A stretch of 64,000 nucleotides of DNA from NCBI GenBank assembly GCA_017437755.1, contig JAFRXI010000011.1, positions 37,955-101,954 of the forward strand. Reading direction: 5' to 3'. The first letter of the stretch is position 1. The number at the start of each line of letters is the position of its first letter. Source of the DNA: Bacteroidales bacterium (GTDB taxonomy: Bacteria > Bacteroidota > Bacteroidia > Bacteroidales > UBA932). This document shows positions 13,795 through 27,020 of the stretch, piece after piece. The notes below the pieces were generated by a model. The model saw only the letters and a program-made list of their open reading frames with translations. It was not told the DNA's origin and made no database searches. The position numbers were made by a program, and so were the translations under genes.

Positions 13795-14260
13795 GGAAGG
13801 AGTATGACGGCCGGGGAAGGCGTTCCCCGGCCCCCTTCCGTCGGCCTGCGCCTCCTGCAACGCCTGAAGAGCATCCCACCCTCCACGGCCTCGGAGGGTC
13901 AGGCGGCATCATCATCAGGCACTGCGGGGCGCGTAACTGATTGATTATAAGCTAAATCCTCAAAAGAACAGTTGCGTCAACCAGTAGGACGGAAATAGCT
14001 AAATCGCTGTGTAATAGGACTTTAAGTGCTGCGCGTCCCCCATGGCTCGCTAGTGCAGCGCCAAAGACTAGCTGCCGGCCCCGCCGGGAATCCCCTCTCT
14101 GACCACGAAACGGATGAGTGATCGTTTCTGTCCGTTTCGTGGCCGCGGTGAGCGGAGAGGTCCGCAGCGCTCACGGCGGACATCAGTTTGACGCTGCGGT
14201 GAGTGTAGAGCGGCTGTGTGCTTACGGCGGGATTTTGGTACGAGGATATGACGCAGCACG
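13795..14260. other. Non-coding stretch with hairpins, start of accessory island
   Basis: No convincing gene. It contains a GC hairpin (CCGGGGAA 13811-13818 with TTCCCCGG 13823-13830), two copies of AGCTAAATC 47 bp apart (13950 and 13997), and the 12-bp-stem hairpin listed separately at 14103-14142. Downstream, GTGAGCG and CGCTCAC around 14148-14175 can also pair. The dense secondary structure without coding potential suggests repeat-derived or untranslated regulatory sequence. Confidence 0.5.
14103..14142. repeat. Hairpin with perfect 12-bp stem
   Basis: CCACGAAACGGA (14103-14114) pairs perfectly with TCCGTTTCGTGG (14131-14142) around a 16-nt loop containing a T run. The same layout, 10-12-bp stem and about 20-nt loop, precedes the other three GC-rich repeats in this island, but there the stem sequence is TGCACGGAGACG. 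The stem here is different yet still perfectly paired, which points to selection for structure rather than sequence, if the elements are related. Confidence 0.5.
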
Positions 14261-14386
14261 ATGGCAGGACGCGAGGCGAGCCTTTCCGGCGAGCTCGCCG
14301 ATGCGTCCAGCCGCCGAAGGTGGTATTTTTCGGCGGCGGTGCCTGCCCGTCACCACTCTGCGACCAAGCGATACTTGATGTAAGAT
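14261..14386. repeat. Dispersed GC-rich structured repeat, copy 1 of 4
   Basis: Begins ATGGCAGGACGCGAGGCGAG, includes the palindrome GGCGAGCTCGCC, the hairpin GCCGCCGAA/TTCGGCGGC, and ends near GCCTGCCCG; copies 1 and 3 share a further tail (GCGATACTTGATGTAAGAT). Related copies are at 18506, 24650 and 26867. Nothing in it looks like a gene. It sits between the toxin-antitoxin remnant and the regulator gene. Either a small palindromic mobile repeat or a structured transcript end is possible. Confidence 0.75.
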
Positions 14387-14480: not shown

Positions 14481-16097
14481 TCAATGACCTTCAAGCAGGT
14501 TTAGGTATTGATAGGAGTGTTCTGTGGGCTTTACCTTAAACTTATCCTTATATCTGGATTTGAATGACATGAGCGAGCTTTTGCTATGGGTGCGTGTAAG
14601 CAGGCAGATGTCTTCATACCTAAACCCCAGGAACATCATGGCTAAAACATTGGAGGTTTTCGGCTTCATGGTTGGGTATTCTTTGTGTAGATGCTCCATG
14701 ACACTGTCATGACATGAGTTGAGCACATCTTCCAATAAAGTATATACCTTTGTGTCGTCTTTCAGGGAATTGAGATTGATTTCAAACTTTCTGAAGAGTT
14801 CGTCCTTCACCGACTTCCGGTCTTCAGTGTGGTACTTATCCGCCAGTTGCAGCAGGCCCGAGACCTGACTCAGCAGGATCTCCCGTAATCGATATCCGTC
14901 AGGGCTTCTAAGTATCTGCTGCTGAAGTGATTCTATCGCTGCCATGTCTTCCCGCACCCGCGCCCTGTGCCGGACACATCGCTCTATGAGGTAAGCAATC
15001 AGGACAAGAAGCAACGCTCCGGCCGCAATGAGCATACATCTCATTTCCAGGACTTTTTGCTCCTTTTCTTTTGCCGCCTGCTGATAATAATCTCTGAGTG
15101 AAGCAGTTACCGATTCAGATAATTTTTGTCTGAGAATGGAATCTTGAACGACAACTGTGAATTCAAAACTCTTGAGAGCCTCTGGATAATTTCCTTTTAA
15201 TTTACAGATATTATAATAGTCATAGGAAACCTTTGCAGAATCCAATCTGTCCAATGCTCTTTCTTGAGCGGCTTTCAGATATCTTTCAGAAGAATGCCTG
15301 TCTCCTTTTTTCTCATACAGGAGCGCCAAATGCGATAATTCAAATGCCTGAAGGGAACTGTCAGGAAGTTGTTCAAAGAGCTCGATTATTTGGTCCGGTT
15401 CATTAATTTCAATATAAAGCAGTTGGGCATAGTTCCTTGCTACATATTCACGAGGAACCGGAAAATAATCCAGCATCAGAAGCGAATCCAGGAGATGATG
15501 GCTTTCCGGGGCTTTGTCAATACACCAGAGAGATTTTGCCATCTCCAATGTTGAGATGAAAGCATTATCCTCCAAACCGGCCCCCTTAAAGTATCGACTT
15601 GCCTTTGAAAAGAGTTCAACGGCATCCTCGTCGTTATAGTTTTGAGATTGCAAATCGCCAAGGTCATATGATATCAACCCCTTGTATCTCAGATTGTTGA
15701 GTCTGTCGGCATATTCCATTGCCTTTCCGTAGTTGAATATGGCTTTATGATTATCGCCGTTTATTTTGTTAAGGCGGGCAAGATAGAAATATGACAGCAT
15801 GCGATGATTTAAGGATCCATGTGATTTGTAGTACTCGTTAGCCGTTGCCGCCAGGGAGTCAGATTTCGGATAGATGTCGTTTTTGTCCAATGCCATGCTG
15901 AGCAACAGGGCGTGATACGCCTTCTCCTTCCTTGATGCCCCTGAATCTTCAATACTGAACAGTACTGAAAGTGCGCTGTCCGGCCTTTCATGGATATAGG
16001 ATTCAATGTCCTTCAGTTCACTGATCCTTGATTTGGGATTACAGGCAGAAAGACAAACAACGAGTGTGAAAGAGAATATGTGAAAAAGATTCTTCAT
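14481..16097 (-). CDS. Membrane-anchored TPR regulator with C-terminal helix-turn-helix-like domain
   Basis: 538 residues from ATG 16097, chosen because it starts a signal peptide with lipobox-like CLSAC; the longer frame adds 18 unlikely residues. Residues ~20-330 are all-helical TPR-like repeats (e.g. ALLYEKKGDRHSSERYLKAA). One transmembrane segment follows (MLIAAGALLLVLIAYLIE), then a basic stretch and a coiled-coil-like region, then a C-terminal ~90-residue domain with VLAMMFLGFRYEDICLLTRTHSKSSLMSFKSRYKDKF, which has the spacing of a helix-turn-helix. This TPR-TM-HTH plan is common in Bacteroidetes one-protein sensory regulators. The gene diverges from a promoter with paired ATGTAAGGT boxes that recur at two other promoters of the island, so it is the natural candidate to bind them. 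That link is inference. Confidence 0.7.
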   Translation of the reverse strand: MKNLFHIFSFTLVVCLSACNPKSRISELKDIESYIHERPDSALSVLFSIEDSGASRKEKAYHALLLSMALDKNDIYPKSDSLAATANEYYKSHGSLNHRMLSYFYLARLNKINGDNHKAIFNYGKAMEYADRLNNLRYKGLISYDLGDLQSQNYNDEDAVELFSKASRYFKGAGLEDNAFISTLEMAKSLWCIDKAPESHHLLDSLLMLDYFPVPREYVARNYAQLLYIEINEPDQIIELFEQLPDSSLQAFELSHLALLYEKKGDRHSSERYLKAAQERALDRLDSAKVSYDYYNICKLKGNYPEALKSFEFTVVVQDSILRQKLSESVTASLRDYYQQAAKEKEQKVLEMRCMLIAAGALLLVLIAYLIERCVRHRARVREDMAAIESLQQQILRSPDGYRLREILLSQVSGLLQLADKYHTEDRKSVKDELFRKFEINLNSLKDDTKVYTLLEDVLNSCHDSVMEHLHKEYPTMKPKTSNVLAMMFLGFRYEDICLLTRTHSKSSLMSFKSRYKDKFKVKPTEHSYQYLNLLEGH

Positions 16098-16156: not shown

Positions 16157-16283
16157 TGAAAATGTAAGGTCCCTTCGAGCCAAATAATTGTTAATCAACG
16201 ATTTAAGATTTGAAAATGTAAGGTTTAGATTATAAATTCTTTGCATCTCTCGCTATATCTTTGCAGTAAGAATAGTATCTTTG
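16157..16283 (+). promoter_or_regulatory. Paired-box promoter, copy 1
   Basis: TGAAAATGTAAGGT occurs at 16157-16170 and identically at 16211-16224, 54 bp apart. After the second box comes a 31-bp gap and TATCTTTG (16256-16263), matching the Bacteroidetes -7 box TAnnTTTG; a second TATCTTTG lies 20 bp on (16276-16283). The stretch from 16230 to 16287 is almost identical to 24883-24935. It lies between the divergently read regulator (start 16097) and the genes from 16296 on. Confidence 0.7.
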
Positions 16284-16295
16284 CCCTAGACACAC

Positions 16296-16511
16296 ATGAT
16301 ATGGAAGGATCAAATGGATATACCCAGCGTTGACACAATCAACATGAAAGATTATGATACGCGTTCATATAAAGCAATGATCCCAATAGTTAATTCTTAT
16401 GCAAAATATGGGAAGTTTAAGACAATGTATTATAGGAGTGTAATACGACATCGGTTTGTGTACAGATTGAGACGGTCACGAAAGAAAGATCAAATGCAAG
16501 CGACTCATTAA
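16296..16511 (+). CDS. Short basic ORF starting in an rhs-like scar
   Basis: 71 codons. The first part contains ATGGAAGGATCAAAT (16301-16315), also present at 23721, and ATGGATATACCCAGCGTT (16314-16331), also present inside the second rhs gene at 21298, so the 5' end looks assembled from Rhs-cassette fragments. The rest is a Lys/Arg/Tyr-rich peptide without a motif I know. It is the first ORF downstream of the paired-box promoter. It may be a gene remnant rather than an expressed protein. Confidence 0.3.
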   Translation: MIWKDQMDIPSVDTINMKDYDTRSYKAMIPIVNSYAKYGKFKTMYYRSVIRHRFVYRLRRSRKKDQMQATH

Positions 16512-16636
16512 CATAAGCTGGAATGGATAGAGTCTTTTTATTCACAGTTACGGAATATTAAGGTCATTTACAATAGTAATTACTTGATAATCGGTTGATT
16601 ATAACAATTTTTCATATACTAACCATGATAATAACC

Positions 16637-17716
16637 ATGAGATTTGTCCGACTGTTATTGATAGGGTTTTGTATGTCGATCTTGCTGTCTTGTACTGATA
16701 AGACTGAATTGGTGAAGACAGATTTGGTTTACTGTATTACGGATACATATCTATATCTGAATGTCTCTCAGTCTTTATCTGTGGCAACTGCGGGCGGACC
16801 TGACGGACTGGGACGGGAAAAATGGGAGAGCAAAAACCCCGGAATTGCGTCCGTGGATCAAACGGGTAAGGTTGTGGGAGTTTCGGTGGGTGATACGGAA
16901 ATAAGTGCCGTGGCATATTATAACAAGAATAAATACGTCGCTTCAATTGTTGTCCATGTCCTTCCGGATGAGATGATTGCCATGCGGAATTGCTATATAG
17001 AAATGGTCTCCGTTGAGGGAGGATCATTTGTGATGGGGAAGGATGGCTATTCCGTCAATCCTGCCAAAGAGGTGACCGTGAAGGGGTTCAGAATCGCAAA
17101 ATATGAGATGACTAACAGACAGTTCAGCGGCATTTGTAGAGAGGGAAAATCTTATTATGGGGACTCGCAGCAATACCGGTTATGTGCTACCTATCCCGGT
17201 GCTGAAAAGGTCGTCTCCATGATCAAAGAGGCGACCGGCCTGAAATTCAGGCTCCCTACCGAGGCTGAATGGGAGTGGGCTGCCAGGGGAGGAAAGAAAA
17301 GCAAAGGGTACATCTATTCAGGAGCCGATAATTTGGATGAGGTTGCATTTTGGAAAGGTAATAGCACCTTCTCGCGTAGTGATATTAGACTTAGTAATGA
17401 AGAAATACTCAACAAGCAATTCTTTGGTTATATAAATCTTGAAATCGGATTGAAACAGCCCAATGAGCTGGGCTTGTACGATATGACCGGAGGCGTATCG
17501 GAGTGGGTGTCGGATCTGTTCCCTGACATCGTCGTGGATAAATCGGATTTGGACGATCCCCGGGATTACAATGAGTACTATAAGGATGCTCATTTCTGTA
17601 AGGGGGGAAGCTTTAACTCATCTGAAAAAGGCTGTTACATATATGCGCGGGAAGCTCATGGCTTGCCTACGTCTACCCGATACTATTCCGGCATCCGTCT
17701 GGTCCTGGACGACTAG
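16637..17716 (+). CDS. Lipoprotein with Ig-like and SUMF1 (formylglycine-enzyme-like) domains
   Basis: 359 residues from ATG 16637; this start gives a clean signal peptide with lipobox ILLSC, whereas the longer frame puts residues in front. Residues ~30-115 look like a bacterial Ig-like (BIG2) domain (WESKNPGIASVDQTGKV). The remainder is a SUMF1/FGE-sulfatase-type domain: VEGGSFVMG, YEMTNRQF, FRLPTEAEWEWAARGG, ELGLYDMTGGVSEWVSD and a closing TRYYSGIRLVL. True formylglycine enzymes oxidise a sulfatase cysteine, but lipid-anchored SUMF1 proteins in Bacteroidetes mostly have other or unknown roles. About 350 bp downstream of the paired-box promoter. Confidence 0.8.
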   Translation: MRFVRLLLIGFCMSILLSCTDKTELVKTDLVYCITDTYLYLNVSQSLSVATAGGPDGLGREKWESKNPGIASVDQTGKVVGVSVGDTEISAVAYYNKNKYVASIVVHVLPDEMIAMRNCYIEMVSVEGGSFVMGKDGYSVNPAKEVTVKGFRIAKYEMTNRQFSGICREGKSYYGDSQQYRLCATYPGAEKVVSMIKEATGLKFRLPTEAEWEWAARGGKKSKGYIYSGADNLDEVAFWKGNSTFSRSDIRLSNEEILNKQFFGYINLEIGLKQPNELGLYDMTGGVSEWVSDLFPDIVVDKSDLDDPRDYNEYYKDAHFCKGGSFNSSEKGCYIYAREAHGLPTSTRYYSGIRLVLDD

Positions 17717-17739
17717 TACCTGTCAGATTATTTCCATGT

Positions 17740-17862
17740 AGGTGGCGGGGATCCGCACGATGGTTTTATTGTAATTAATGGAAAGAGTTTGTATTTTGAC
17801 ACCACGGGAAATCACTCAAATAACTACAGAAAAATCAATAAGAATAATCGTTATGTCTATTA
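17740..17862 (+). pseudogene. Remnant of an Rhs toxin C-terminus
   Basis: This stretch is nearly identical to 22765-22877, which encodes the last residues of the second Rhs protein (GKSLYFDTTGNHSNNYR..NKNNRYVY, stop). Here the same codons and stop are present, but nothing upstream encodes the rest of an Rhs protein. It leads straight into a copy of the downstream gene (start 17853), so the tail of a toxin and its neighbour were duplicated together or left behind when the remainder was lost. Confidence 0.8.
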
Positions 17863-18449
17863 ACAGAGTTTTATTACATACCCTTTTACTACTTGTCTTA
17901 ATACCGTATTCTGCTGAGGCAAAAAGTCTTGATGCGACTTTGAGGCAATGCCAAAATAAAGCCATGAAAGGCTTTAGAGGACGGCGGTTTCCGCACTATA
18001 TACAAAGATCAAGGACAAGAGCATTAGATAATTATGCTTGGAACATCATAAGTCAATCAGATACTATTACTGACATTGTTATTATCGACTTTGAGACACC
18101 TTCCCGAGATGATATTTTTATCTGTCGCGATACGGTAATCGGGTTTGATGGTCTTTGTAATCCCCCGGAGATATTCAGTAAAGAAGAAATAGAACAAATG
18201 CGAAATACTTTGTCAAGAATTATGGTTATGGATAGAGCAACTGAAAGGGCAATTAATATTAGACATAAAGATGATTTGGTGAGTGTTATTGTCTTAAGGA
18301 CAAAACTATTCAAGGGGAAACGAGGTTGGACTGGTAATACTAATGTATTTATCCTTCCCGTAGCATATCTCTTCCCTATTGACGAGTACAGGGTCTGCCC
18401 GGCCCCGACCTGGCATCTCGTTTCAGCACTCCTGCACGGAGACGCATAA
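17853..18449 (+). CDS. Exported putative immunity protein, orphan copy
   Basis: 198 residues from ATG 17853; the ATG sits in the stop region of the toxin remnant, exactly as in the second copy at 22867. A signal peptide (about 1-25, ending AEA) predicts export to the periplasm. The mature part is shared with the protein at 22867 (more than 80 percent by eye), but the last ~17 residues (from DEYRVC) run into the downstream structured repeat and differ, so this copy's C-terminus was replaced. Position directly behind an Rhs toxin end suggests an immunity protein. No known domain recognised. Without an intact toxin it would be an orphan immunity gene. Confidence 0.6.
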   Translation: MSINRVLLHTLLLLVLIPYSAEAKSLDATLRQCQNKAMKGFRGRRFPHYIQRSRTRALDNYAWNIISQSDTITDIVIIDFETPSRDDIFICRDTVIGFDGLCNPPEIFSKEEIEQMRNTLSRIMVMDRATERAINIRHKDDLVSVIVLRTKLFKGKRGWTGNTNVFILPVAYLFPIDEYRVCPAPTWHLVSALLHGDA

Positions 18450-18600
18450 ATAGCCCGTTTTTTCCGTCTCCGTGCAAGTATACTGTCGACATGGTTGTCG
18501 TGGCAATGGCAGGACGTGAGGCGAGCCTTTTCGGCGAGCTCGCCGATGCGTCCAGCCGCCGGAGGTGGTATAGTCCGGCGGCGATGCCTCCCCTGAATAT
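18423..18600. repeat. Hairpin plus GC-rich repeat, copy 2 of 4
   Basis: TGCACGGAGACG (18433-18444) pairs perfectly with CGTCTCCGTGCA (18465-18476). A 30-nt linker shared with copy 3 (GTATACTGTCGACATGG...) leads to the GC-rich repeat at 18506-18592 with the GGCGAGCTCGCC palindrome and CCGCCGGA/TCCGGCGG hairpin. The reading frame of the orphan immunity gene enters this element. It separates that cassette from the promoter of the first full rhs gene. Confidence 0.75.
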
Positions 18601-18667
18601 TAGGTTTCCACACAATCAAGCTGTTTACAAAAGTAGTCTTTTCACAGTCATTTACCACAGGAAAACC

Positions 18668-18772
18668 AAAATGTAAGGTTCCCATGTGGTAAAATATTGA
18701 TAATAAGTACTTTGTATTTTATAAATGTAAGGTGCTGATTACATATTCTTTCAGAATCATGCGGTAAATTTG
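18668..18772 (+). promoter_or_regulatory. Paired-box promoter, copy 2 (rhs)
   Basis: AAAATGTAAGGT at 18668-18679 and TAAATGTAAGGT at 18722-18733, again 54 bp apart. The next 31 bp are followed by TAAATTTG (18765-18772), a TAnnTTTG -7 box. The sequence between boxes differs from copies 1 and 3, so the conserved boxes and distances stand out. Predicted transcription starts roughly 100 bp before the first rhs gene. Confidence 0.7.
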
Positions 18773-18800
18773 CCGCAGATAAACCCAAATATCTTGTCCT

Positions 18801-18896
18801 ATGCTAAACAACAACTCAATGGCCCTTCTAAACACACAAGACATTAAGGAAGGAATAATTATATTTGCATTATTACCATGCGACGGATTGGGCTAA
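18801..18896 (+). CDS. Possible 31-residue leader ORF overlapping rhs
   Basis: ATG 18801 opens a 31-codon frame that ends at TAA 18894-18896, 16 bp inside the rhs gene. It lies just downstream of the predicted transcription start. Such an overlap could couple translation of rhs to a leader, but no codon pattern or homology supports it beyond position. Confidence 0.25.
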   Translation: MLNNNSMALLNTQDIKEGIIIFALLPCDGLG

Positions 18897-20401
18897 TAAC
18901 ATTGTTGCTATCCCTGCTCGGGATAGCGAACGCGTTGTCGGTATATGCCGGAGGCTTATACCAGCCCTATCCGTCGCAGAATGTTACTTATACTTCGTTT
19001 GACCGCCCCGGGACAATAGCGAAGGGTCAGTATTCTGCCACTTTTGTATACGGGGGCGACAACGGCAGGGTGAAGATGTCAGTCACGGATAGTACCGGGA
19101 CGTTCCTTACCCGGTACTATGCCGGCGGGCGGTATGAGAAGGATGTCCTTCCCAGCAACACCACCAAGGAGCGCCTGTACCTTGGCGGGGACGCATACTC
19201 AGCCCCGATGGTTCTTACAAGGACTGGGAACGGGAGCTGGACCCTTCACAACATCGGTCGGGACTATCTCGGGAGCATCATCCTCATAGCAAGTCCTGAA
19301 GGGTTCAAGGAGGCGGAGTACAGCTATGATGCGTGGGGGCGTCTGAGGGATCCGTCCACGCTTGAAATCTATCAGGAGGGCAGCGTGCCCGACCTTATGC
19401 ACGGCCGCGGCTACACCGGCCATGAGCACCTGCCATGGCTGGGGCTCATCAACATGAACGCCCGCCTCTACGATCCCCTCACCGGCCGCTTCCTCGCCCC
19501 CGACCCCTACATCCAGGACCCGGGCTTCACCCAGAATTACAACCGCTACACCTATGCTCTGAATAATCCGCTTAAGTATACGGATGAGAGTGGAGAGTTA
19601 TTCGGAACAATCCTTACAGCTATCCTTCGTTTACCGTATGAAATTGTCAGGGGAATTATTATTCCTTATTTCGTTGGATTCAGCGATACGGCAAAAGCTG
19701 GCAGAATATTTAGCGAAACATGGTCCGAATATGGACACGTTGTGTCAAATGCATTTAAGATTGAAACAGGGATGTTTCATACAGATAAGAATAAAAGTTG
19801 GGGAGGAAGGACCTGGGAATTCTTTTCTCGTTATTTATGGCAACCCCACCAAGTATTGTGGGGCCGGTTTCTGTCCCTTAATTATAACTTCTTTGGTAAT
19901 GTAAAAAGTGTCACTAAGTCCAACGGACTTACTACGGTTGAAACCTATTCTGACGATTGGGGTGCGTTCACATTAGGCAACTATACAGTTGGCGAACGAG
20001 GTATAACTGCGGATTTTGACAATACGCTGTTCCAGCACGAATATGGTCATTATATTCAAAGTCAAGTTGTGGGGCCTGAATACTTTTCCAGTTATGCTTT
20101 GCCGAGCGTGTTCAGTATTGATGATAGACATGATCATCATCCAGTTGAACAGGATGCTAATATAAGATCAAGAAATTACATGATTAAAAATGGCTTGCCA
20201 ATTGATAAATGGAATTATTATTACAATCCGATTGATAAATTAGAGGGCGTTGACAGGGATAGTCCTGAATTAATGGAGCCCCTGCCGGTAAATAGAAAGC
20301 CTTTCGTCTCAAGTTATATTTTTCCTATATTGTTTCCCGTTCTGGGCGATATTATTACCGGAGCAATTCTGTCCGGTGCTGATAATGCCCGAAAGTATTA
20401 G
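18878..20401 (+). CDS. Short Rhs protein with HEYGH metallopeptidase-like C-terminal domain
   Basis: 507 residues. A signal peptide (1-24) is followed by only a short stretch of YD-type sequence and then the Rhs-associated core (about 150-240: YDAWGRLR, GRGYTGHEHL, NARLYDPLTGRFLAPDPYIQ, YNRYTYALNNPLKYTDESGE). Everything after the core is more AT-rich and specific. It contains HEYGH at 387-391, an HExxH zinc-site motif, with a later HHPVEQDAN that could give the third ligand. In Rhs proteins the segment after the core is the toxic or effector part. Canonical Rhs proteins are over 1000 residues, so this is a minimal version. The gene 5 bp downstream encodes a lipoprotein that may be its immunity partner. 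Driven by the paired-box promoter at 18668. Confidence 0.85.
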   Translation: MRRIGLITLLLSLLGIANALSVYAGGLYQPYPSQNVTYTSFDRPGTIAKGQYSATFVYGGDNGRVKMSVTDSTGTFLTRYYAGGRYEKDVLPSNTTKERLYLGGDAYSAPMVLTRTGNGSWTLHNIGRDYLGSIILIASPEGFKEAEYSYDAWGRLRDPSTLEIYQEGSVPDLMHGRGYTGHEHLPWLGLINMNARLYDPLTGRFLAPDPYIQDPGFTQNYNRYTYALNNPLKYTDESGELFGTILTAILRLPYEIVRGIIIPYFVGFSDTAKAGRIFSETWSEYGHVVSNAFKIETGMFHTDKNKSWGGRTWEFFSRYLWQPHQVLWGRFLSLNYNFFGNVKSVTKSNGLTTVETYSDDWGAFTLGNYTVGERGITADFDNTLFQHEYGHYIQSQVVGPEYFSSYALPSVFSIDDRHDHHPVEQDANIRSRNYMIKNGLPIDKWNYYYNPIDKLEGVDRDSPELMEPLPVNRKPFVSSYIFPILFPVLGDIITGAILSGADNARKY

Positions 20402-20406
20402 TTATC

Positions 20407-20937
20407 ATGAAACGAGTCTTTACCCTATTGTTCTGTTTCTTTTTATGCATATCATGCGTGTTCATTCCTGATAAGGCAAAACATAAACGCATCACATTTA
20501 AGAACAATTCCCAGGAAAGCGTATTTGTTACCTGGAGAGTCCCGCCATATTCCGACCTGGACTTTCAACTCCAGGTTGATATATATTATCAGCATTTTCG
20601 TGACGCAGGGAAGACTGTCCTACCGGGCCAGAGTAATACGGATATTCTCAAGTTACGAGATTATCTTGAAAATCGTTTTAGTTATGGCTACTATGAGAGT
20701 GAAGAGACTGGTTCCGAAGTAACGATACTCGTAGCTGTATTCATCCTCAAAGACTTGGAAAAAATGGATCATGCGAAGCCTGCCGATTTAGACTATTATT
20801 TGTATGAATGCACATTGGATGCGTTGATAAATGCAAATTGGACGATTGAGTTTCCTTATAACCAAGAGGGCATCTCTTCTAAAACAATGACTTACCATTA
20901 CATACCGGAGGACCCATTTTACCATGAGTCTTCTTAG
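20407..20937 (+). CDS. Lipoprotein, putative immunity partner of the first Rhs protein
   Basis: 176 residues with a signal peptide ending in lipobox CISC, so anchored on the periplasmic or outer face. No known domain; the mature part is rich in aromatic and acidic residues. It starts 5 bp after the rhs stop codon, the usual place for the cognate immunity gene, and the effector domain is a predicted peptidase that could act in the envelope, which would fit an exported immunity protein. Function is inferred from position only. Confidence 0.6.
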   Translation: MKRVFTLLFCFFLCISCVFIPDKAKHKRITFKNNSQESVFVTWRVPPYSDLDFQLQVDIYYQHFRDAGKTVLPGQSNTDILKLRDYLENRFSYGYYESEETGSEVTILVAVFILKDLEKMDHAKPADLDYYLYECTLDALINANWTIEFPYNQEGISSKTMTYHYIPEDPFYHESS

Positions 20938-20939
20938 GT

Positions 20940-22877
20940 TTGGGCTATGATTACACGATGTTCAGAAGTATGGCGGGGGTTGTTGACCGGGTGGATTATT
21001 GGGGAGGAGCAACTGGACAAAACTGTTCAGGAAAAAACGCGGTTGGACAGGTAACAGTAATGTATTTATCGTTCCCGCAGAATATCTCTTCCAGCATAAT
21101 GTTCTGTTGCACATACGACCATAGGGGAAGACAAACCTCAGAATCGGTTTGCTATGCCGACAGTACTTTGGCACAGATGTATTTATTGTACGATAACCTG
21201 GGCCGGGTAGGGCAATGCTTCGTGGGTATTGGTGATGACAACCATGTGGAGAGCTATGCGTATAATCTTCATGGGAATCTGTCAGCCCTCTCCGGAGATG
21301 GATATACCCAGCGTTTGTTTTACGAGATCTCCCCATCCGGTGCTCCAACCCATAAGCGGTTTGACGGAAAGATATCTTCAATTTCTTGGAATGAATTGGA
21401 GAGCCGGCCAGACACCCTGACTGTTCTGTCGTATGACGGAAGAGGGCGTTTTCGTGATGCGACGACCGTCAGCAATCCCTATGATTTGCCTGTTGAAACC
21501 ATTACATATCAGGATAATGGCAAAACGCTCATTCTGAATCGCTATAGCAGTGACGGCAACATGTGCGAAGACCTTCTGTTCTCCACTTTGGGAGAGATGA
21601 AGACGCCGCTTGTGACCAATTACATGGAAGCCGGTGAGGATTATAGCTTTGAGTATGATGAACGCAGCAATCTAACGCTGGACGAACTCACCGGATTCAG
21701 TGCCGCATATACCCTTCTTGACCGTCCTTCACGTATTGAACCGTTCTTTGGAGGACCTGTGTATTTCACTTGGCTGGCAGACGGGACAAAGGTTGCACAG
21801 CTGGGTGATTATGATGAAGGGTATGACTACATTGGCTCTTTCAGGTATCGTAGAGGTGATGACACATTGAGACTTGAGAGTATTCCGTTCAGCAAAGGTA
21901 GGATAAGGTTTGACTCTGGAGGAAACATCCTTCCCGAATATCATGCGACGGATTATCTGGGCAGCATACGCCGGGTCATGAGTGAAACAGGGGTAGACAA
22001 AACGTATGACTATGTGCCATATGGATCGCTTGTGGATGAATTCACAAACACGCCGCACGGAAACGAGTATCTGTTCCAGGGAAAGGAAATGATTGTGTTT
22101 GAGGGGTTCTCGCTGTATGACTTTGGTGCCCGGTTCTACAATCCCCGGACCTTGATGTGGCTAACACGCGATCCCCTTGCCGAGGAGCGCCCGGACCTCT
22201 CTCCATATGTCTTCTGCGCCGCAGATCCAGTCAACATGGTTGATCCGGATGGAAGAATGATTGTTGTACTTTCAGGAAACAAGGAGTTTTCGTATGAGTA
22301 TGGCTTCTTTTATGATCCGGAAGGTAGGGTTTACTCTGGGGAAGAGTTAGGTTTTCAAGCTATTGAATCTGCATTGAATCAAATAATGTCAAGAAATAAT
22401 GGTTTTGACCTTGTTGACGCTTTGATTAGATCTGAAAAGATGGTTCTAATAAGTTATGGAGGAAATCGTAACCGTGAAACTGGAAAATATCTTCATTTTG
22501 ACAGTGCTGTTAGCTGGAATCCAGATAATGATGCAGTTGGAGGACAGCCCTCATTTATTTCTCTTGCTCATGAACTTGCTCATAGTAAAGATCGGTTAGG
22601 TGGTACGATTAATATGGAAACGTGGTATTCATTTTATGACGAAAGAATCAATGCTATTAGGGATGTTCCAAAAGCAGAAATATTTTCAACTCATATTGAA
22701 AACTTGATCAGGAAAGAGCACAATATCCCTTTGAGAGTATCTTATAGCATTTATGAAAACGGCGATCCTCATGAGGGTTTTATTATCTATAAAGGAAAGA
22801 GTTTGTATTTTGACACCACGGGGAATCACTCAAATAACTACAGAATAATCAACAAGAATAATCGTTATGTCTATTAA
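20940..22877 (+). CDS. Rhs-core protein with HELAH C-terminal domain, 5'-truncated
   Basis: 645 residues counted from TTG 20940, the first start after an in-frame stop; ATG 20958 or 20970 are alternatives. There is no signal peptide, unlike the first Rhs protein. Residues ~60-400 have YD-repeat character (YDNLGRVGQ, YAYNLHGNL, FEYDERSNL). The core follows: YHATDYLGSIRRVM, YDYVPYGS, GARFYNPRTLMWLTRDPLAE, SPYVFCAADPVNMVDPDGR. The C-terminal domain holds SLAHELAHSKDR (HExxH at 544-548), resembling M91-type effector peptidases found at Rhs ends. Bases 21015-21092 repeat the end of the downstream immunity gene in another frame, so the 5' end is a recombination joint. Probably a displaced Rhs module; whether it is still made is open. 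Confidence 0.8.
   Translation: MGYDYTMFRSMAGVVDRVDYWGGATGQNCSGKNAVGQVTVMYLSFPQNISSSIMFCCTYDHRGRQTSESVCYADSTLAQMYLLYDNLGRVGQCFVGIGDDNHVESYAYNLHGNLSALSGDGYTQRLFYEISPSGAPTHKRFDGKISSISWNELESRPDTLTVLSYDGRGRFRDATTVSNPYDLPVETITYQDNGKTLILNRYSSDGNMCEDLLFSTLGEMKTPLVTNYMEAGEDYSFEYDERSNLTLDELTGFSAAYTLLDRPSRIEPFFGGPVYFTWLADGTKVAQLGDYDEGYDYIGSFRYRRGDDTLRLESIPFSKGRIRFDSGGNILPEYHATDYLGSIRRVMSETGVDKTYDYVPYGSLVDEFTNTPHGNEYLFQGKEMIVFEGFSLYDFGARFYNPRTLMWLTRDPLAEERPDLSPYVFCAADPVNMVDPDGRMIVVLSGNKEFSYEYGFFYDPEGRVYSGEELGFQAIESALNQIMSRNNGFDLVDALIRSEKMVLISYGGNRNRETGKYLHFDSAVSWNPDNDAVGGQPSFISLAHELAHSKDRLGGTINMETWYSFYDERINAIRDVPKAEIFSTHIENLIRKEHNIPLRVSYSIYENGDPHEGFIIYKGKSLYFDTTGNHSNNYRIINKNNRYVY
21015..21092 (+). pseudogene. 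Immunity-gene tail fragment inside the second rhs gene
   Basis: About 78 bases almost identical to 23309-23386, where they encode the end of the immunity protein (TKLFRKKRGWTGN...AEYLF). Here they are read in a shifted frame as part of the Rhs N-terminus (TGQNCSGKNAVGQVTV). It marks the point where an immunity gene was joined to the interior of an rhs gene, as expected when C-terminal toxin/immunity modules are exchanged or deleted by recombination. Confidence 0.8.
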
Positions 22878-23415
22878 CAGAGTTTTATTACATACCCTTT
22901 TACTTCTTGTCTTAATACCGTATTCTGCTGAGGCAAAAAGTCTTGATGCGACTTTGAGGCAATGCCAAAATAAAGCCATGAAAGGCTTTAGAGGACGGTT
23001 TCCGCACTATATACAAAGATCAAGGACAAGAGCATTAGATAATTATGCTTGGAACATCATAAGTCAATCAGATACTATTACTGACATTGTTATTATCGAC
23101 TTTGAGACACCTTCCCGGGATGATATTATTATATGTCGCGATACAGTAATCGGATTTGACGGATTATGTAATCCTCCAAAGATATACAATAAGGAATATA
23201 TAGAGATAAACCGTAATGCTTTATCAAAAATTTTAGTTATGGATAGAGCAACTGAAAGGGAAATTAATACTAGATATAAAGATGAGTTGGTGGCTTATAT
23301 TGTCTTAAGGACAAAACTGTTCAGGAAAAAACGCGGATGGACTGGTAACAGTAATGCATTTATCGTTCCCGCAGAATATCTCTTCCCTTTCGACGAACTT
23401 ATTAACATTCCATAG
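22867..23415 (+). CDS. Exported putative immunity protein of the second Rhs protein
   Basis: 182 residues. ATG 22867 overlaps the end of the rhs gene by 11 bp, so translation is probably coupled. Signal peptide about 1-25 ending in AEA; mature part without known domain. Its paralogue at 17853 is nearly identical over the first ~100 residues and then diverges in patches, a pattern seen in immunity families that track toxin variants. The export signal suggests that the HELAH effector is neutralised outside the cytoplasm. Assignment is by position. Confidence 0.65.
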   Translation: MSINRVLLHTLLLLVLIPYSAEAKSLDATLRQCQNKAMKGFRGRFPHYIQRSRTRALDNYAWNIISQSDTITDIVIIDFETPSRDDIIICRDTVIGFDGLCNPPKIYNKEYIEINRNALSKILVMDRATEREINTRYKDELVAYIVLRTKLFRKKRGWTGNSNAFIVPAEYLFPFDELINIP

Positions 23416-23417
23416 AG

Positions 23418-23558
23418 ATGGGGAAACGGCTACTTTATATTCTAATTTCATTACCTTGCTTCATATCTTGCTTTAATGAAGAAAGGCTTAACAGTCGTAT
23501 TGAAAGGCAGGTCAACTATGATTATTCAAAATATCATTGGATAGCAGTGGCAACATAA
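23418..23558 (+). CDS. Truncated lipoprotein ORF
   Basis: 46 codons: a signal peptide with a lipobox-like CFISC followed by only about 25 residues before a TAA. It starts 2 bp after the immunity gene. Its length and the change of frame at 23537 suggest the 5' end of a broken lipoprotein gene rather than a complete one. Confidence 0.4.
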   Translation: MGKRLLYILISLPCFISCFNEERLNSRIERQVNYDYSKYHWIAVAT

Positions 23559-23737
23559 TTCTGGGCAACGATGAAAAAAAACTAGATGAATATAATTTTG
23601 AGAAGCATGGTTATTCAGGGAAAACCTCTTTCCTTAAAACTTTTGGACGGAATATAGAAACTGTCATTGCGAAGATTGTTCATGGCAGAGGGCATGATTT
23701 CAATATTTATACTTATGGGTATGGAAGGATCAAATAG
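23537..23737 (+). pseudogene. Fragment of a cassette gene
   Basis: A 66-codon open frame without a good start (TTG), overlapping the truncated lipoprotein. It reads LDSSGNIILGNDEKK at the start and GHDFNIYTYGYG near the end, which has the feel of an Rhs-effector fragment but matches nothing I can name. It ends inside the start of the next gene. Probably debris from module exchange. Confidence 0.4.
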
Positions 23738-24176
23738 TTTTTTATCAAAGCTCTCATATATTATTATCGCCTGCTCGTTTCTTCTAATATTTTTATTTTT
23801 AGATTTATATCGAGATATCGGCTTGAAGAATATAGCATATGAATGCGATATTAATCCTAATTGTTTGTATCATTTTAGAACTAGGAGATTCATTTTCGAT
23901 CATCATGGTGACCTCTTTGAATGGACATCTGCCATGTATAAGGGGACACCACAACCTTGTTTTGAATCAGATACTCTTAGCTTTCAACAGCAAATAATCA
24001 GTATTAATAATTCCATATCAATTCTTCCTGATTCACTAATGCAAAGAATCAATGATAAGAAAGTAACAGGGAAAGTGTTATGTGATATTAAAAAGGATAA
24101 TCATTATACTGATGTCGTTTTCGTTCTTATGGACAAGGAAAACAACATGATAGATTTTATCATTTTTGAAGATTAA
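23721..24176 (+). CDS. Membrane protein of unknown function
   Basis: 151 residues from ATG 23721 (several upstream Met codons share the frame). One strongly hydrophobic segment near residues 8-28 (SYIIIACSFLLIFLFLDLY) and then a soluble domain with no known motif, perhaps facing the periplasm. Single-TM small proteins behind Rhs genes are often immunity proteins; here that is only a possibility. AT-rich like the rest of the island. Confidence 0.55.
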   Translation: MEGSNSFLSKLSYIIIACSFLLIFLFLDLYRDIGLKNIAYECDINPNCLYHFRTRRFIFDHHGDLFEWTSAMYKGTPQPCFESDTLSFQQQIISINNSISILPDSLMQRINDKKVTGKVLCDIKKDNHYTDVVFVLMDKENNMIDFIIFED

Positions 24177-24209
24177 AGTATTGTATTCTTGGATAAAAGT
24201 GTTTGTGCT

Positions 24210-24530
24210 ATGAAACTGAATCTAAACTATACATACGCTCGCATTGTTGTCTCCGTCTTCATGCTTCAATATGAAGTCGTCACTTTCCTATTTTTTCCTA
24301 TTCCACGGCATTCTGAGACCGCCCCAGGCTTCTACGAAACTCAATGCTTCTCTTTACAATTATATTGCATGATTGCCAAGATATTATTTTGGGCGTTATA
24401 TTTGGTTTTAAGCCTATGTGTTGATAAATATAATGACAATAAGCGTTTACGGTTTTTTGCGTATTGTGTTGATTTTATCCTTGTTGCATTACTCTTTTTA
24501 AGACTATTCCGTATATTACCGATACTGTGA
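24210..24530 (+). CDS. Small multi-pass membrane protein
   Basis: 106 residues from ATG 24210. Three likely membrane segments (around 10-30, 52-72 and 83-104) separated by short loops. No known family. It follows the previous membrane protein by 33 bp and ends just before the structured repeat, so it closes this cassette. An immunity or accessory role is possible but unsupported. Confidence 0.5.
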   Translation: MKLNLNYTYARIVVSVFMLQYEVVTFLFFPIPRHSETAPGFYETQCFSLQLYCMIAKILFWALYLVLSLCVDKYNDNKRLRFFAYCVDFILVALLFLRLFRILPIL

Positions 24531-24568
24531 CGAGAATTCCAGATGATTCAATACTGATATTCCCTTGC

Positions 24569-24775
24569 CGCACTCCTGCACGGAGACGTATGAAAGCGCC
24601 TGTTTTTCCGTCTCCGTGCAAGTATACTGTCGACATGGTTGTCGTGGCAATGGCAGGACGCGAGGCGAGCCTTTCCGGCGAGCTCGCCGATGCGTCCAGC
24701 CGCCGGATTTGGTATTCTCAGGCGGCGGTGCCTGCCCAACATCAGCCTACGACCATGCGATACTTGATGTAAGAT
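24569..24775. repeat. Hairpin plus GC-rich repeat, copy 3 of 4
   Basis: Stem TGCACGGAGACG (24577-24588) with CGTCTCCGTGCA (24609-24620), linker, then the GC-rich repeat 24650-24738 with the GGCGAGCTCGCC palindrome, and the tail GCGATACTTGATGTAAGAT shared with copy 1. It is nearly identical to copy 2 through the hairpin and linker. Placed between the end of one cassette and the next paired-box promoter. Confidence 0.8.
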
Positions 24776-24805
24776 GTATAGTTTTCAAAAAAGCAAGCTA
24801 TTTAC

Positions 24806-24931
24806 GAAAATGTAAGGTCCTTTCGCGTCAAATAATTGTTGATCAACAATTTAAGATTTGAAAATGTAAGGTGGATAATATAAATTCTTTGCATCTCTAG
24901 CTATATCTTTGCAGTAAGAATAGTATCTTTG
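24806..24931 (+). promoter_or_regulatory. Paired-box promoter, copy 3
   Basis: GAAAATGTAAGGT at 24806-24818 and 24860-24872, 54 bp apart; 31 bp later TATCTTTG (24904-24911), with a second TATCTTTG at 24924-24931. Sequence between and after the boxes is close to copy 1. It should drive the lipoprotein and beta-barrel genes starting at 24964. Confidence 0.7.
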
Positions 24932-24963
24932 CCCTATTGACAGATGAACTAAACTGTTCAAGA

Positions 24964-25674
24964 ATGAAAAGAGAGATAGCTTATATTGTTGCCGGCATGA
25001 TGCTGTTGGCATGTTCTCCGAAGGTAACCACGAATTTCTCCTCTGCCTGGGACTCTCTTCCGGAAGATGCCTATGTGGCAGTACTGGGTCCTGAAAGTCC
25101 TGAACCTGAGAATGCAGAGGCTTTGGGCACGATTTCAATAGGTGATACCGGATTCACTACCACTAGGAATGGCTCGTATGAGGCTGTGTTGGCTATTGCA
25201 AGGGATCGTGCGAGATGGGCGGGCGGAAACGTGGTTAAGATCGATAAACACAAGACTCCTGATTTGATCTGTTCAACTCATCGCATTGAAGCCAGGATTC
25301 TTAGGGTCAGTGATGCAAAATCACTTGATTTTAAGATTAGTAATCCCACACCCAGTCATCCGGATTGCGTGATAATCTATTTTTATCGCCCTCCATCCAG
25401 CATAGGTAGTCTTGTTTCATATGATGTAAACATAGGGGAAGCGGCAGTGTTCAGGGCAAAGAATAAGTCCAAGGCGGAGGTTAAGGTTTATGAGGAAGGT
25501 GTCCTGAATATCTGGGCTAGGACTGAATCCCGGGCCGAAATCAATCTTCCGGTGAAACTCGGCGAGGAGTATTACATCCGTTGCACGGTGACGATGGGAA
25601 TGATGACGGGGCATCCGCTGCTTGAGGCCGTTGTTCCCGATATGGGAAGAAGTGAATCTGAATCTATCAAGTGA
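24964..25674 (+). CDS. Lipoprotein, DUF2846-like
   Basis: 236 residues from ATG 24964, which gives a signal peptide with lipobox LLAC. The first half has no clear domain. The second half (CVIIYFYRPPSS..., VNIGEAAVFRAKNKSKAEVKVYEEGVLNIWA, EEYYIRCTV) matches the strand pattern of DUF2846-type envelope proteins, which place a short beta domain on a lipid anchor. It is followed after 13 bp by a beta-barrel gene. Not obviously part of a toxin system, but it uses the island's paired-box promoter. Confidence 0.6.
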   Translation: MKREIAYIVAGMMLLACSPKVTTNFSSAWDSLPEDAYVAVLGPESPEPENAEALGTISIGDTGFTTTRNGSYEAVLAIARDRARWAGGNVVKIDKHKTPDLICSTHRIEARILRVSDAKSLDFKISNPTPSHPDCVIIYFYRPPSSIGSLVSYDVNIGEAAVFRAKNKSKAEVKVYEEGVLNIWARTESRAEINLPVKLGEEYYIRCTVTMGMMTGHPLLEAVVPDMGRSESESIK

Positions 25675-25687
25675 ATAACTGATTATC

Positions 25688-26401
25688 ATGAAAAAGACTC
25701 TTATTGCTCTTGTGGTTTTCATAACTGCTTCCATTTCGGTTTCAGGGCAAGTCATCGTTACGTCGGACAGGTCGGTGTTCAATCCTTATCCCAAGTGGAG
25801 GATAGCGGTTCATGGGGGATATTCATACAGGATAGGGAGGACAGATCCCAGTGCCAGCCAATTCGTGACGGATTATATTAAAAAATTGAAACATGGTTAT
25901 TCGTATGGCGCCGAGGTCACTTGGTACTTTGGCAATACCTTTGGTCTTGGCTTGTGTTACGATGATTACCATTCGGCAAGGTCTGAATATGTTACTGGTA
26001 CATCTGACGAAGGAGATAGCCGTACCGGCGAAATGTCTGATTGCATAGATATAAGGTTTATAGGCCCGATAGCATCGTACAGGGCGGTTTCTTCCGGGAA
26101 TAAGCATTATTTCATGTTTAATTTCGGGGCTGGATATCTCGGTTACTGGGATAAGTCAGAGTTATTTGATTCGTTCGTCTTAAGAGGCGATACTTTCGGG
26201 TATATGGCGGAATTCAGCTATGATTATGCAATTACCAGGAAGATAGCCATAGGAGCATCCTTGTCCATGATTTCCGGATATCTTACGAGTTACAGGAAGA
26301 AAGAAAACGGTGGATACGTGCAAAAAATCGATCTTGAAAAGGGTTCCTATGAAGGTTTGGTACATCTGAACGTATCGGCTGGAATCCGTTTTAACCTTTG
26401 A
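25688..26401 (+). CDS. Outer-membrane beta-barrel protein
   Basis: 237 residues with a signal peptide ending SVSGQ. Alternating hydrophobic and aromatic strands (WRIAVHGGYSYRIG, SYGAEVTWYFGNTFGLGLCY, HYFMFNFGAGYLGYW, KIAIGASLSMISGYL) and a final strand SAGIRFNL are typical of a small 8-10-stranded porin-like barrel of Bacteroidetes. Co-transcribed with the upstream lipoprotein. Substrate unknown. Confidence 0.75.
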   Translation: MKKTLIALVVFITASISVSGQVIVTSDRSVFNPYPKWRIAVHGGYSYRIGRTDPSASQFVTDYIKKLKHGYSYGAEVTWYFGNTFGLGLCYDDYHSARSEYVTGTSDEGDSRTGEMSDCIDIRFIGPIASYRAVSSGNKHYFMFNFGAGYLGYWDKSELFDSFVLRGDTFGYMAEFSYDYAITRKIAIGASLSMISGYLTSYRKKENGGYVQKIDLEKGSYEGLVHLNVSAGIRFNL

Positions 26402-26624
26402 CGTGCTTTGTCTTTGCAAACCTCATGCGCTCCCACAAGATTCTTTGTAGGCATATAAGTGGTTGATTTGTTGATATTTAACCATTCCGGCTCTCTTTGC
26501 AGTAACCTGCGAGGCGCTCAAAGGCTCTGACCGCTGGCCCTCGGCGCCATTCCCATCTGCGTCAAGCCTGGCCCCTATTTCACGTCATGCCCGGCTCCGG
26601 CCGGACATCTCTTCGCGGCACTTC

Positions 26625-26740
26625 TGCACAGAGACGTATGAAAGCGCCTGTTTTTCCGTCTCCGTGCACAGAACCGACCATTTCCCTTTAAATTCCCACA
26701 CGGAGACGCATATATGGCCCACTTTATCCGTCTCCGTGCA
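26625..26740. repeat. Two tandem copies of the island hairpin
   Basis: First copy: TGCACAGAGACG (26625-26636) with CGTCTCCGTGCA (26657-26668), one mismatch. Second: CACGGAGACG (26699-26708) with CGTCTCCGTG (26729-26738). The loop of the first is identical to copy 3 at 24577. This is the only place where the hairpin is doubled. Confidence 0.75.
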
Positions 26741-26756
26741 AAAAGGCCTCATGAGG

Positions 26757-26844
26757 TGCGTAAGGTGTCCCTACAGTGAAGGGACCTACGCGTTTTACCG
26801 GGGTTTTCGTGTATGGTGTCCAGAAAACAAGGACACCTTACGCA
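26757..26844. other. Inverted repeat with mutually exclusive pairings
   Basis: TGCGTAAGGTGTCC (26757-26770) is a perfect 14-bp inverted repeat of GGACACCTTACGCA (26831-26844). Each arm can instead form a local hairpin: GTCCCT with AGGGAC on the left, and GGTGTCC with GGACACC (26815-26837) on the right. Such alternative folding is seen in attenuators and in recombination sites; no gene nearby decides which. Confidence 0.5.
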
Positions 26845-26866
26845 GTGTCAGGCAGTTTGCCATGCT

Positions 26867-26955
26867 ATGGCAGGACGCGAGGCGAGCCTTTCCGGCAAGC
26901 TCGCCGATGCGTCCAGCCGCCGAAGGTGGTATTTTCCGGCGGCGGTGCCTGCCCG
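26867..26955. repeat. Dispersed GC-rich structured repeat, copy 4 of 4
   Basis: Same unit as at 14261, from ATGGCAGGACGCGAGG to GCCTGCCCG. One change (GGCAAGCTCGCC) breaks the central palindrome. The CCGCCGAA/TTCCGGCGG hairpin remains. It lacks the hairpin directly in front; the hairpins here lie 130 bp upstream with an inverted repeat between. Confidence 0.75.
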
Positions 26956-27020
26956 CCACCACTCACTGAGCATGGCCCCATGATGTATATTATTATCGCA
27001 GTTGAATTGTACCACAACCC

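What the first reader, a model, noticed from the sequence alone, without database searches (positions are those of the whole stretch)
16157..24931. Three island promoters share paired ATGTAAGGT boxes with fixed 54-bp and 31-bp spacings
Boxes at 16157/16211, 18668/18722 and 24806/24860 are each 54 bp apart, and in all three the second box is followed after exactly 31 bp by TAnnTTTG. At the middle site most of the remaining sequence differs, so the boxes and distances are what is conserved. The second box would lie just upstream of the -33 region, the position of an activator site. A transcription unit starts downstream each time (SUMF1 lipoprotein, rhs, DUF2846-like lipoprotein/barrel), which suggests one regulon for the accessory island. 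I know of no described Bacteroidetes regulator with this site.
Basis: seen in the sequence. Interest (0 to 1): 0.8.

Follow-up and report, generated by a model that had tools for sequence, protein, structure and literature searches.

The report
Three-part promoter switch for secreted effectors
Rumen bacteria related to Bacteroides appear to switch on clusters of secreted attack and defence proteins through a rigid three-part DNA switch, probably read by a membrane-anchored regulator encoded right beside it, a control system not described in the papers searched.

Summary
In detail: identical ATGTAAGGT pairs at 16162/16216, 18671/18725 and 24810/24864, exactly 54 bp apart, each with TAnnTTTG 31 bp on. 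The 2.88-Mb genome has one more such site and no others with up to 3 mismatches. The two regulator homologues found in the genome both lie divergently beside a box pair. Regulator: predicted lipoprotein signal, TPR domain, one TM helix, C-terminal HTH. In relatives, 17 of 17 members of one regulator subgroup carry GTWAC-type box pairs 54-56 bp apart in the divergent promoter; 0 of 59 other homologues do. The -7 element lies at 39-40 bp in 33 of 34 distinct sites. Controlled clusters encode Rhs proteins, C10 proteases with inhibitors, and a serpin with a subtilase. Best reading: a membrane-anchored regulator binds both boxes across a bend made by an IHF/HU protein and activates secreted-effector operons. 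Binding and activation are inferred, not shown.

The parts
14481..16097 (-). Candidate regulator: predicted lipoprotein signal peptide, TPR-like domain, TM helix (about residues 354-372), C-terminal helices read as HTH. Longest ORF runs to 16151; the ATG at 16097 fits the signal peptide.
   Evidence: one of two homologues found in the genome, both divergent from a box pair
16162..16170 (+). Site 1, box 1 ATGTAAGGT
16193..16205 (+). Site 1, midpoint IHF-type element AATCAACGATTTA (9/9 to WATCARNNNNTTR)
16216..16224 (+). Site 1, box 2 ATGTAAGGT
16256..16263 (+). Site 1, -7 element TATCTTTG (a second TATCTTTG lies 20 bp downstream)
16296..16511 (+). 71-codon ORF, first ORF of unit 1; its family was not searched
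16595..17716 (+). SUMF1/FGE-sulfatase lipoprotein with Big_2 domain
17778..18449 (+). 223-aa ORF with a signal-peptide-like stretch, duplicated at 22867-23415
18671..18679 (+). Site 2, box 1
18702..18714 (+). Site 2, midpoint element AATAAGTACTTTG (8/9)
18725..18733 (+). Site 2, box 2
18765..18772 (+). Site 2, -7 element TAAATTTG
18878..20401 (+). Rhs-associated core protein
   Evidence: TIGR03696
20407..20937 (+). 176-aa lipoprotein-like protein, no family
20940..22877 (+). Rhs core with C-terminal peptidase M91 domain
22867..23415 (+). 182-aa ORF, near-copy of 17778-18449
24810..24818 (+). Site 3, box 1
24841..24853 (+). Site 3, midpoint element GATCAACAATTTA (8/9)
24864..24872 (+). Site 3, box 2
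24904..24911 (+). Site 3, -7 element TATCTTTG (a second TATCTTTG lies 20 bp downstream)
24937..25674 (+). DUF2846-like lipoprotein (24.2 bits, below the Pfam cut-off of 34.3)
25688..26401 (+). OprF-like barrel protein

Best explanation
The boxes are the operator of a small regulon, read by the divergently encoded membrane regulator (14481-16097, minus strand). The operator has three rigid parts: box 1, an IHF-type bend site at the midpoint, and box 2, with the -7 element a fixed 39-40 bp beyond the start of box 2. The regulator's C-terminal HTH binds the two direct-repeat boxes, an IHF/HU-family protein folds the DNA between them so that one regulator dimer can hold both, and box 2, just upstream of the -33 region, places it to contact RNA polymerase and activate. 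The periplasmic TPR domain presumably senses a signal in the cell envelope. Targets are clusters of secreted proteins: Rhs proteins, proteases and protease inhibitors. Shown by comparison: the architecture, its link to one regulator subgroup, and its promoter position. Inferred: binding, bending, activation, the signal.
For: Both regulator homologues found in the genome adjoin a box pair. 17 of 17 subgroup members among named relatives, plus the window, have the operator; 0 of 59 other homologues do within about 350 bp (77 hits, one, L209, dropped for short upstream sequence). Box pairs peak at 54/55/56 bp (6/3/6 among 90 upstream regions, at most 2 at any other spacing from 20 to 120; 13/4/13 against 0-3 at spacings 40-53 and 57-71 in 1.37 Mb). 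Midpoint IHF consensus at least 8/9 at one offset in 24 of 35 rows, shuffle mean 0.06, maximum 2; without one repeated site and one site found by a pattern that asked for ATCA, 23 of 33, shuffle mean 0.08, maximum 2. The offset is 31 for spacing 54 (10 of 10 scoring at least 8), 32 for spacing 56 (11 of 11), 32 or 31 for spacing 55 (3 and 1). Best -7 match at 39-40 in 34 of 35 rows. Box core and HTH covary in 22 distinct regulators: 8 of 8 TGTAA-type have G/S/N at one position near the presumed recognition helix, 14 of 14 TGTTA-type have E/D/Q (12) or K (2). An HU/IHF-family gene is present. Further operators lie near the same clusters in L144, L150, L154 and L047.
Against: No binding or expression data. 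The HTH has no Pfam DNA-binding hit, and fold matches to LuxR-type domains are weak (E above 0.5, mixed with unrelated folds). In a quick tree the box-bearing set is not monophyletic (its common ancestor also covers 6 box-less homologues). The subgroup is the 17 best hits to a profile made from six box-bearing regulators, and most of its operators were also in the matrix used to score them. The covariation was seen after the fact and rests on few independent changes. The strict TGTTACC pair pattern shows no genome-wide excess over its backward control. 10 of 33 distinct sites score below 8/9 at the midpoint. Activation rather than repression is inferred from position only. Sites 2 and 3 have no regulator gene of their own.
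Confidence: 0.68

Rival explanations
1. The three sites look alike only because a promoter cassette was recently duplicated; the boxes have no special function.
For: Sites 1 and 3 are a 142-bp repeat at 90%; sites 2 and 4 are 71% identical outside the boxes.
Against: Sites 1 and 2 share only 55% outside the boxes but keep boxes, midpoint element and -7. Relatives keep the same layout with different letters.
Confidence: 0.05
2. Another DNA-binding protein reads the boxes, and the adjacent TPR-HTH protein is only a conserved neighbour, for example an anti-factor or sensor.
For: The HTH is not recognised by Pfam and its fold match is weak.
Against: Operator presence follows one regulator subgroup (17 of 17 against 0 of 59); box type covaries with the HTH.
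Confidence: 0.15
3. The regulator represses these promoters by looping across the IHF-type site rather than activating them.
For: Two operators flanking a bend site also suit a repression loop; the regulator's own divergent gene lies on the box 1 side.
Against: Box 2 stays upstream of the -7 region by a fixed 39-40 bp and does not overlap it; the four sites of this genome lack a -33 TTTG at normal spacing, as expected of activator-dependent promoters.
Confidence: 0.15
4. The elements are recombination or integration arm sites (direct repeats plus an IHF site) of a mobile island.
For: No tool result; direct repeats flanking an IHF site resemble integrase arm-site layouts (recalled).
Against: Fixed distance to a promoter -7 in 34 of 35 rows; the gene linked to the sites is a predicted membrane protein with no integrase family hit.
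Confidence: 0.03

Closest known systems
BT3442 family (NCBIfam NF053779), a TPR protein of the B. thetaiotaomicron MACPF lipoprotein cluster (PMC2954219, passages read)
   Same: N-terminal about 180 residues align (56.6 bits); TPR; BT_3442 to BT_3433 is a putative operon rich in lipoproteins, with BT_3441, a homologue of BVU_0276 (PDB 3d33), in it
   Different: Far below the curated cut-off of 940 bits; no operator or regulatory role is stated in the passages read
Membrane-anchored one-component regulators (SusR, ToxR, CadC; recalled)
   Same: Periplasmic sensor, one TM helix, cytoplasmic HTH in one chain
   Different: Sensor is TPR-like after a lipobox Cys; paired boxes 54-56 bp apart around an IHF-type site
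IHF-assisted promoters (recalled)
   Same: Bend site between activator sites upstream of the core promoter
   Different: Bend site at the midpoint of two direct repeats and fixed to a Bacteroides-type -7; not tied to sigma-54
LuxR/NarL (GerE) HTH regulators
   Same: Weak fold matches of the C-terminal domain to RcsB, ComA, TraR, FixJ and EvgA domains among unrelated hits
   Different: No GerE hit in Pfam; box-bearing regulators have one extra residue in the turn relative to other homologues

Membership tests
BT3442 family (NF053779) | score above the curated cut-off (940 bits) over the whole protein | tested here: not met
   56.6 bits, residues 1-181 only; 17 of 20 homologues hit at E 0.01 or less
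Membrane-anchored one-component regulator | envelope sensor, TM helix and DNA-binding domain in one chain | tested here: inconclusive
   signal peptide and lipobox Cys19 and TM about 354-372 are predicted; the C-terminal helices are an HTH by my reading and by weak fold matches only
LuxR/GerE HTH | GerE profile match | tested here: not met
   no GerE hit at E 0.01 or less
LuxR/GerE HTH | four-helix GerE fold | tested here: inconclusive
   RcsB, ComA, TraR, FixJ and EvgA among the hits, E above 0.5
TPR protein | TPR profile above cut-off | tested here: inconclusive
   window protein 23 bits v 30.1; 14 of 20 homologues hit TPR_12 at E 0.01 or less; model is paired helices
IHF-assisted promoter | IHF consensus (recalled) at a fixed position between activator sites | tested here: met
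   23 of 33 distinct sites at least 8/9 at one offset; shuffle mean 0.08, maximum 2 in 500
IHF-assisted promoter | IHF/HU protein binds and bends it | not testable with these tools
   one PF00216 gene in the genome
Bacteroidetes primary-sigma promoter (consensus recalled) | -7 TAnnTTTG | tested here: met
   4 of 4 sites in this genome; relatives more often GAnnTTTG
Bacteroidetes primary-sigma promoter (consensus recalled) | -33 TTTG about 19-21 bp upstream of the -7 | tested here: not met
   absent at normal spacing in the 4 sites of this genome; TTG at 15-17 bp after the start of box 2 in 11 of 21 relative sites
DUF3244 (first target gene in relatives) | profile match to a DUF3244 structure | tested here: met
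   alignment of 11 proteins hits 3sd2 at E 7e-4; no DUF3244 hit in Pfam for the single proteins

The most novel reading that the evidence does not exclude
The operator is a U-turn switch. An IHF/HU-family protein folds the DNA back at the midpoint of two direct-repeat GTWAC boxes, so that in space they become a dyad held by one membrane-anchored TPR-HTH dimer. This draws the promoters of Rhs, protease and inhibitor clusters to the inner membrane and couples their transcription directly to a periplasmic signal. The module (subgroup regulator, three-part operator and often a DUF3244 first gene) has diversified its box/HTH specificity among rumen Bacteroidales, each lineage keeping its own insulated effector regulon.
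Probability: 0.4. Interest if true: 0.78.

Novelty: new variant of a known kind. Interest (0 to 1): 0.64.

Why it matters
It gives a subgroup of unstudied Bacteroidales TPR-HTH membrane proteins a likely function and a DNA code that can be tested. The code predicts, from sequence alone, which Rhs, protease and inhibitor clusters are controlled together. It also offers a natural set of box/HTH pairs for working out specificity, and a promoter class in which the position of a bending protein is fixed to the base pair.

Tried and rejected
Strict TGTTACC-N47-49-TGTTACC over 398 family genomes gave 27 places and no excess over the backward control; many hits were coding or tandem, and 6 of the 27 loci hold a regulator homologue within the 1.5-kb flanks. 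Adding the midpoint ATCA gave 9 hits against 2 in the control. Of these 9, 8 score at least 20 with the operator matrix and 1 (L222) has nothing above 14; 6 have a regulator homologue within about 1.5 kb (counting L226 by its earlier copy L118), one (L115) shares its contig with another operator and regulator, and one (L223) sits at a contig edge.

A general scan for repeated 9-mers upstream of 90 homologues was noisy because of codon periodicity; the box-specific scan was clear. Homologues outside the family (6 other genomes among the 247 searched in the order at E 1e-60; L227, L229-L234) lack the operator. The L015 pair lies 606 bp in and was not counted as an operator. Fold search of the C-terminal domain is weak. 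A search of genome contigs with the window regulator alone found no relative.

Rows dropped or repeated: one search dropped one of 77 hits (L209, short upstream sequence); the 35-row site table holds one site twice (L144 and L124), and one row (L223) came from a pattern that asked for ATCA; one search repeats the count without both.

Papers: one search found one paper naming BT3442 (PMC2954219, passages read). PMC3462683 and PMC10434189: passages read. Other papers: search listings only. Searches listed nothing that I recognised from title or abstract start as a description of this operator or of regulation by this family; the library lacks most subscription journals.
Full report
THE OBSERVATION. 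The window lies in a 2.88-Mb, 76-contig, 85%-complete genome. The exact pair box-N45-box occurs 4 times in it: these three and one at C46:37089. About 8e-5 would be expected. Extending the pattern to TAnnTTTG and allowing 3 mismatches still gives only those four, with none for the backward control. None of 150 other genomes of the genus searched has the exact pair. Sites 1 and 3 are related copies (142 bp at 90%), but sites 1 and 2 share only 55% of the surrounding bases.

THE REGULATOR. Immediately divergent from site 1 is an ORF (14481-16097, minus strand) with a signal peptide ending in LSAC, helical repeats, a TM helix near residues 354-372 and C-terminal helices that I read as a helix-turn-helix. 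The genome search found one other homologue, a shortened copy on C46, and it too lies divergently beside the fourth box pair. NCBIfam matches only the N-terminal third, to the BT3442 family, far under its cut-off. Pfam sees TPR_12 in 14 of 20 homologues and no DNA-binding family. The modelled C-terminal domain matches LuxR-type domains weakly, among unrelated folds.

RELATIVES. Homologues at E 1e-20 were found in 76 of 200 genomes of the genus, the window's own included. I read the upstream regions of 90 loci, some of them near-duplicates (29 relative loci, the window's own, and 60 fetched). Pairs of xTGTWAn boxes pile up at spacings of 54 (6), 55 (3) and 56 (6) bp; no other spacing from 20 to 120 exceeds 2. 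The letters differ from the window's: most relatives have (A/T)TGTTACC-like or (A/T)TGTAACC-like boxes. A search with a profile of six box-bearing regulators brought 78 named loci, largely rumen and gut Bacteroidales. Among 76 regulators in them with enough upstream sequence, the 17 of one subgroup (L141-L157, the best hits) plus the window have the operator, while the 59 others do not (in one search, 16 of the 17 score 19.9 or more and the best non-member 8.9). One of the 17, L143, was missed because its start codon was misplaced; one search found its operator (26.3). Most of the 17 are places that had also supplied the scoring matrix; L142, L143 and L151-L154 had not in their divergent promoters, although L142's promoter is nearly the same as L016's, which had. 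All box-bearing regulators have one extra residue in the turn of the HTH; of the 59 others only L176 has the same and L182 has two. Against this, the quick tree does not make the box-bearing set monophyletic: its common ancestor also covers six box-less homologues. Homologues from other families of the order lack the operator.

THE THIRD ELEMENT. Between the boxes sits YTGATWATCARnnnnTTR. The IHF consensus WATCARNNNNTTR (recalled) scores at least 8 of 9 at one fixed position in 24 of 35 rows (window: 9, 8, 8; C46: 7), against a mean of 0.06 and a maximum of 2 when the spacer is shuffled. Without one repeated site and one site found by a pattern that asked for ATCA, it is 23 of 33, against 0.08 and 2. 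Its position follows the midpoint: offset 31 for spacing 54 (10 of 10 rows scoring 8 or more), 32 for spacing 56 (11 of 11), 32 or 31 for spacing 55 (3 and 1). The box core GTWAC and the central TGATWATCA are both near-palindromes, and by these offsets their centres are 27-28 bp apart on each side, at most one bp off. The genome has one HU/IHF-family gene by PF00216. The best match to a -7 element begins 39 or 40 bp after the start of box 2 in 34 of 35 rows, 33 of 34 distinct sites. A -33 TTTG at normal spacing is missing in this genome's four sites; a TTG lies 15-17 bp after the start of box 2 in 11 of 21 relative sites.

SPECIFICITY. In 22 distinct regulators whose HTH and box could both be read, 8 of 8 TGTAA-type (window included) have G, S or N at one position at the start of the presumed recognition helix; of 14 TGTTA-type, 12 have E, D or Q and two have K (two further rows, L124/L238 and L220/L240, repeat L144 and L153). 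The residue class was chosen after looking, and on a tree built without the HTH the TGTAA type falls in two groups plus the window, with some weakly supported nodes. It is suggestive, not proof.

TARGETS. In the window the units begin with a 71-codon ORF and a SUMF1-like lipoprotein (site 1), an Rhs core protein followed further on by an Rhs-M91 protein (site 2), and a DUF2846-like lipoprotein with an OprF-like barrel (site 3). In relatives, the first gene after the operator is a small secreted protein of one family in 11 of 15 loci whose genes were listed (the L146 copy was read from an internal start and the L155 copy without an ATG start). The profile of the 11 matches DUF3244 structure 3sd2 (E 7e-4). 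BT2221, called BtiZ and described as a staphostatin-like inhibitor of C10 proteases in PMC3462683, is listed as DUF3244 in PMC10434189 (passages read). Behind it come RHS-repeat proteins (L141, L143, L150, L151, L153), C10 proteases with Spi-type inhibitor domains (L145, L154; in L144 the protease gene comes first), an Spi-like protein below the Pfam cut-off (L147) or, further on, a TonB receptor (L157); L142 has a serpin first and a subtilase further on; L149 and L152 begin with genes of no clear family. Additional operators near the clusters of L144, L150, L154 and L047 show that the window's layout, one regulator with several sites, is not unique.

MECHANISM. Shown by comparison: the three-part layout, its fixed distance to the -7, and its link to one regulator subgroup. 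Inferred: the regulator binds both boxes, an IHF/HU protein folds the DNA between them, and box 2 positions the regulator to help RNA polymerase. A U-turn at the midpoint would turn two direct repeats into a spatial dyad suited to one dimer; this explains why direct repeats and a central bend site go together, but it is an inference.

NOVELTY. Membrane-anchored one-component regulators and IHF-assisted promoters are known kinds (recalled). I found no paper describing this operator or a regulatory role for this family, seen as listings, apart from the three papers whose passages I read. I file it as a new variant of a known kind.

Noticed in passing
window 14165-14348, 18410-18593, 24554-24737, 26588-26964: A GC-rich repeat, with a CGGAGACG...CGTCTCCG hairpin in several copies, lies just upstream of sites 2 and 3 and elsewhere in the island; the exact hairpin occurs at 5 places in the genome, 3 on this contig and 2 on C14. 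Possibly a terminator or REP-like element.
   Followed up: partly
contig C46:36548-37000 (L006; L004 867-1493): A shortened copy of the regulator (83% over residues 363-513) lacking the TPR region, beside the fourth box pair near a contig end.
   Followed up: partly
window 17778-18449 and 22867-23415: Near-duplicate ORFs (89-95% DNA identity) placed after different genes; possibly immunity-type partners.
   Followed up: no
window 16256-16263 and 16276-16283; 24904-24911 and 24924-24931: Two TATCTTTG elements 20 bp apart in sites 1 and 3, so the true -7 is not settled.
   Followed up: partly
L142, L144, L145, L154: Protease and inhibitor genes in one cluster behind one operator: serpin with subtilase, C10 protease with Spi-domain or DUF3244 genes.
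   Followed up: partly
window 20940-22877: Rhs protein with a C-terminal peptidase M91 domain and a weak XopG-like match.
   Followed up: no
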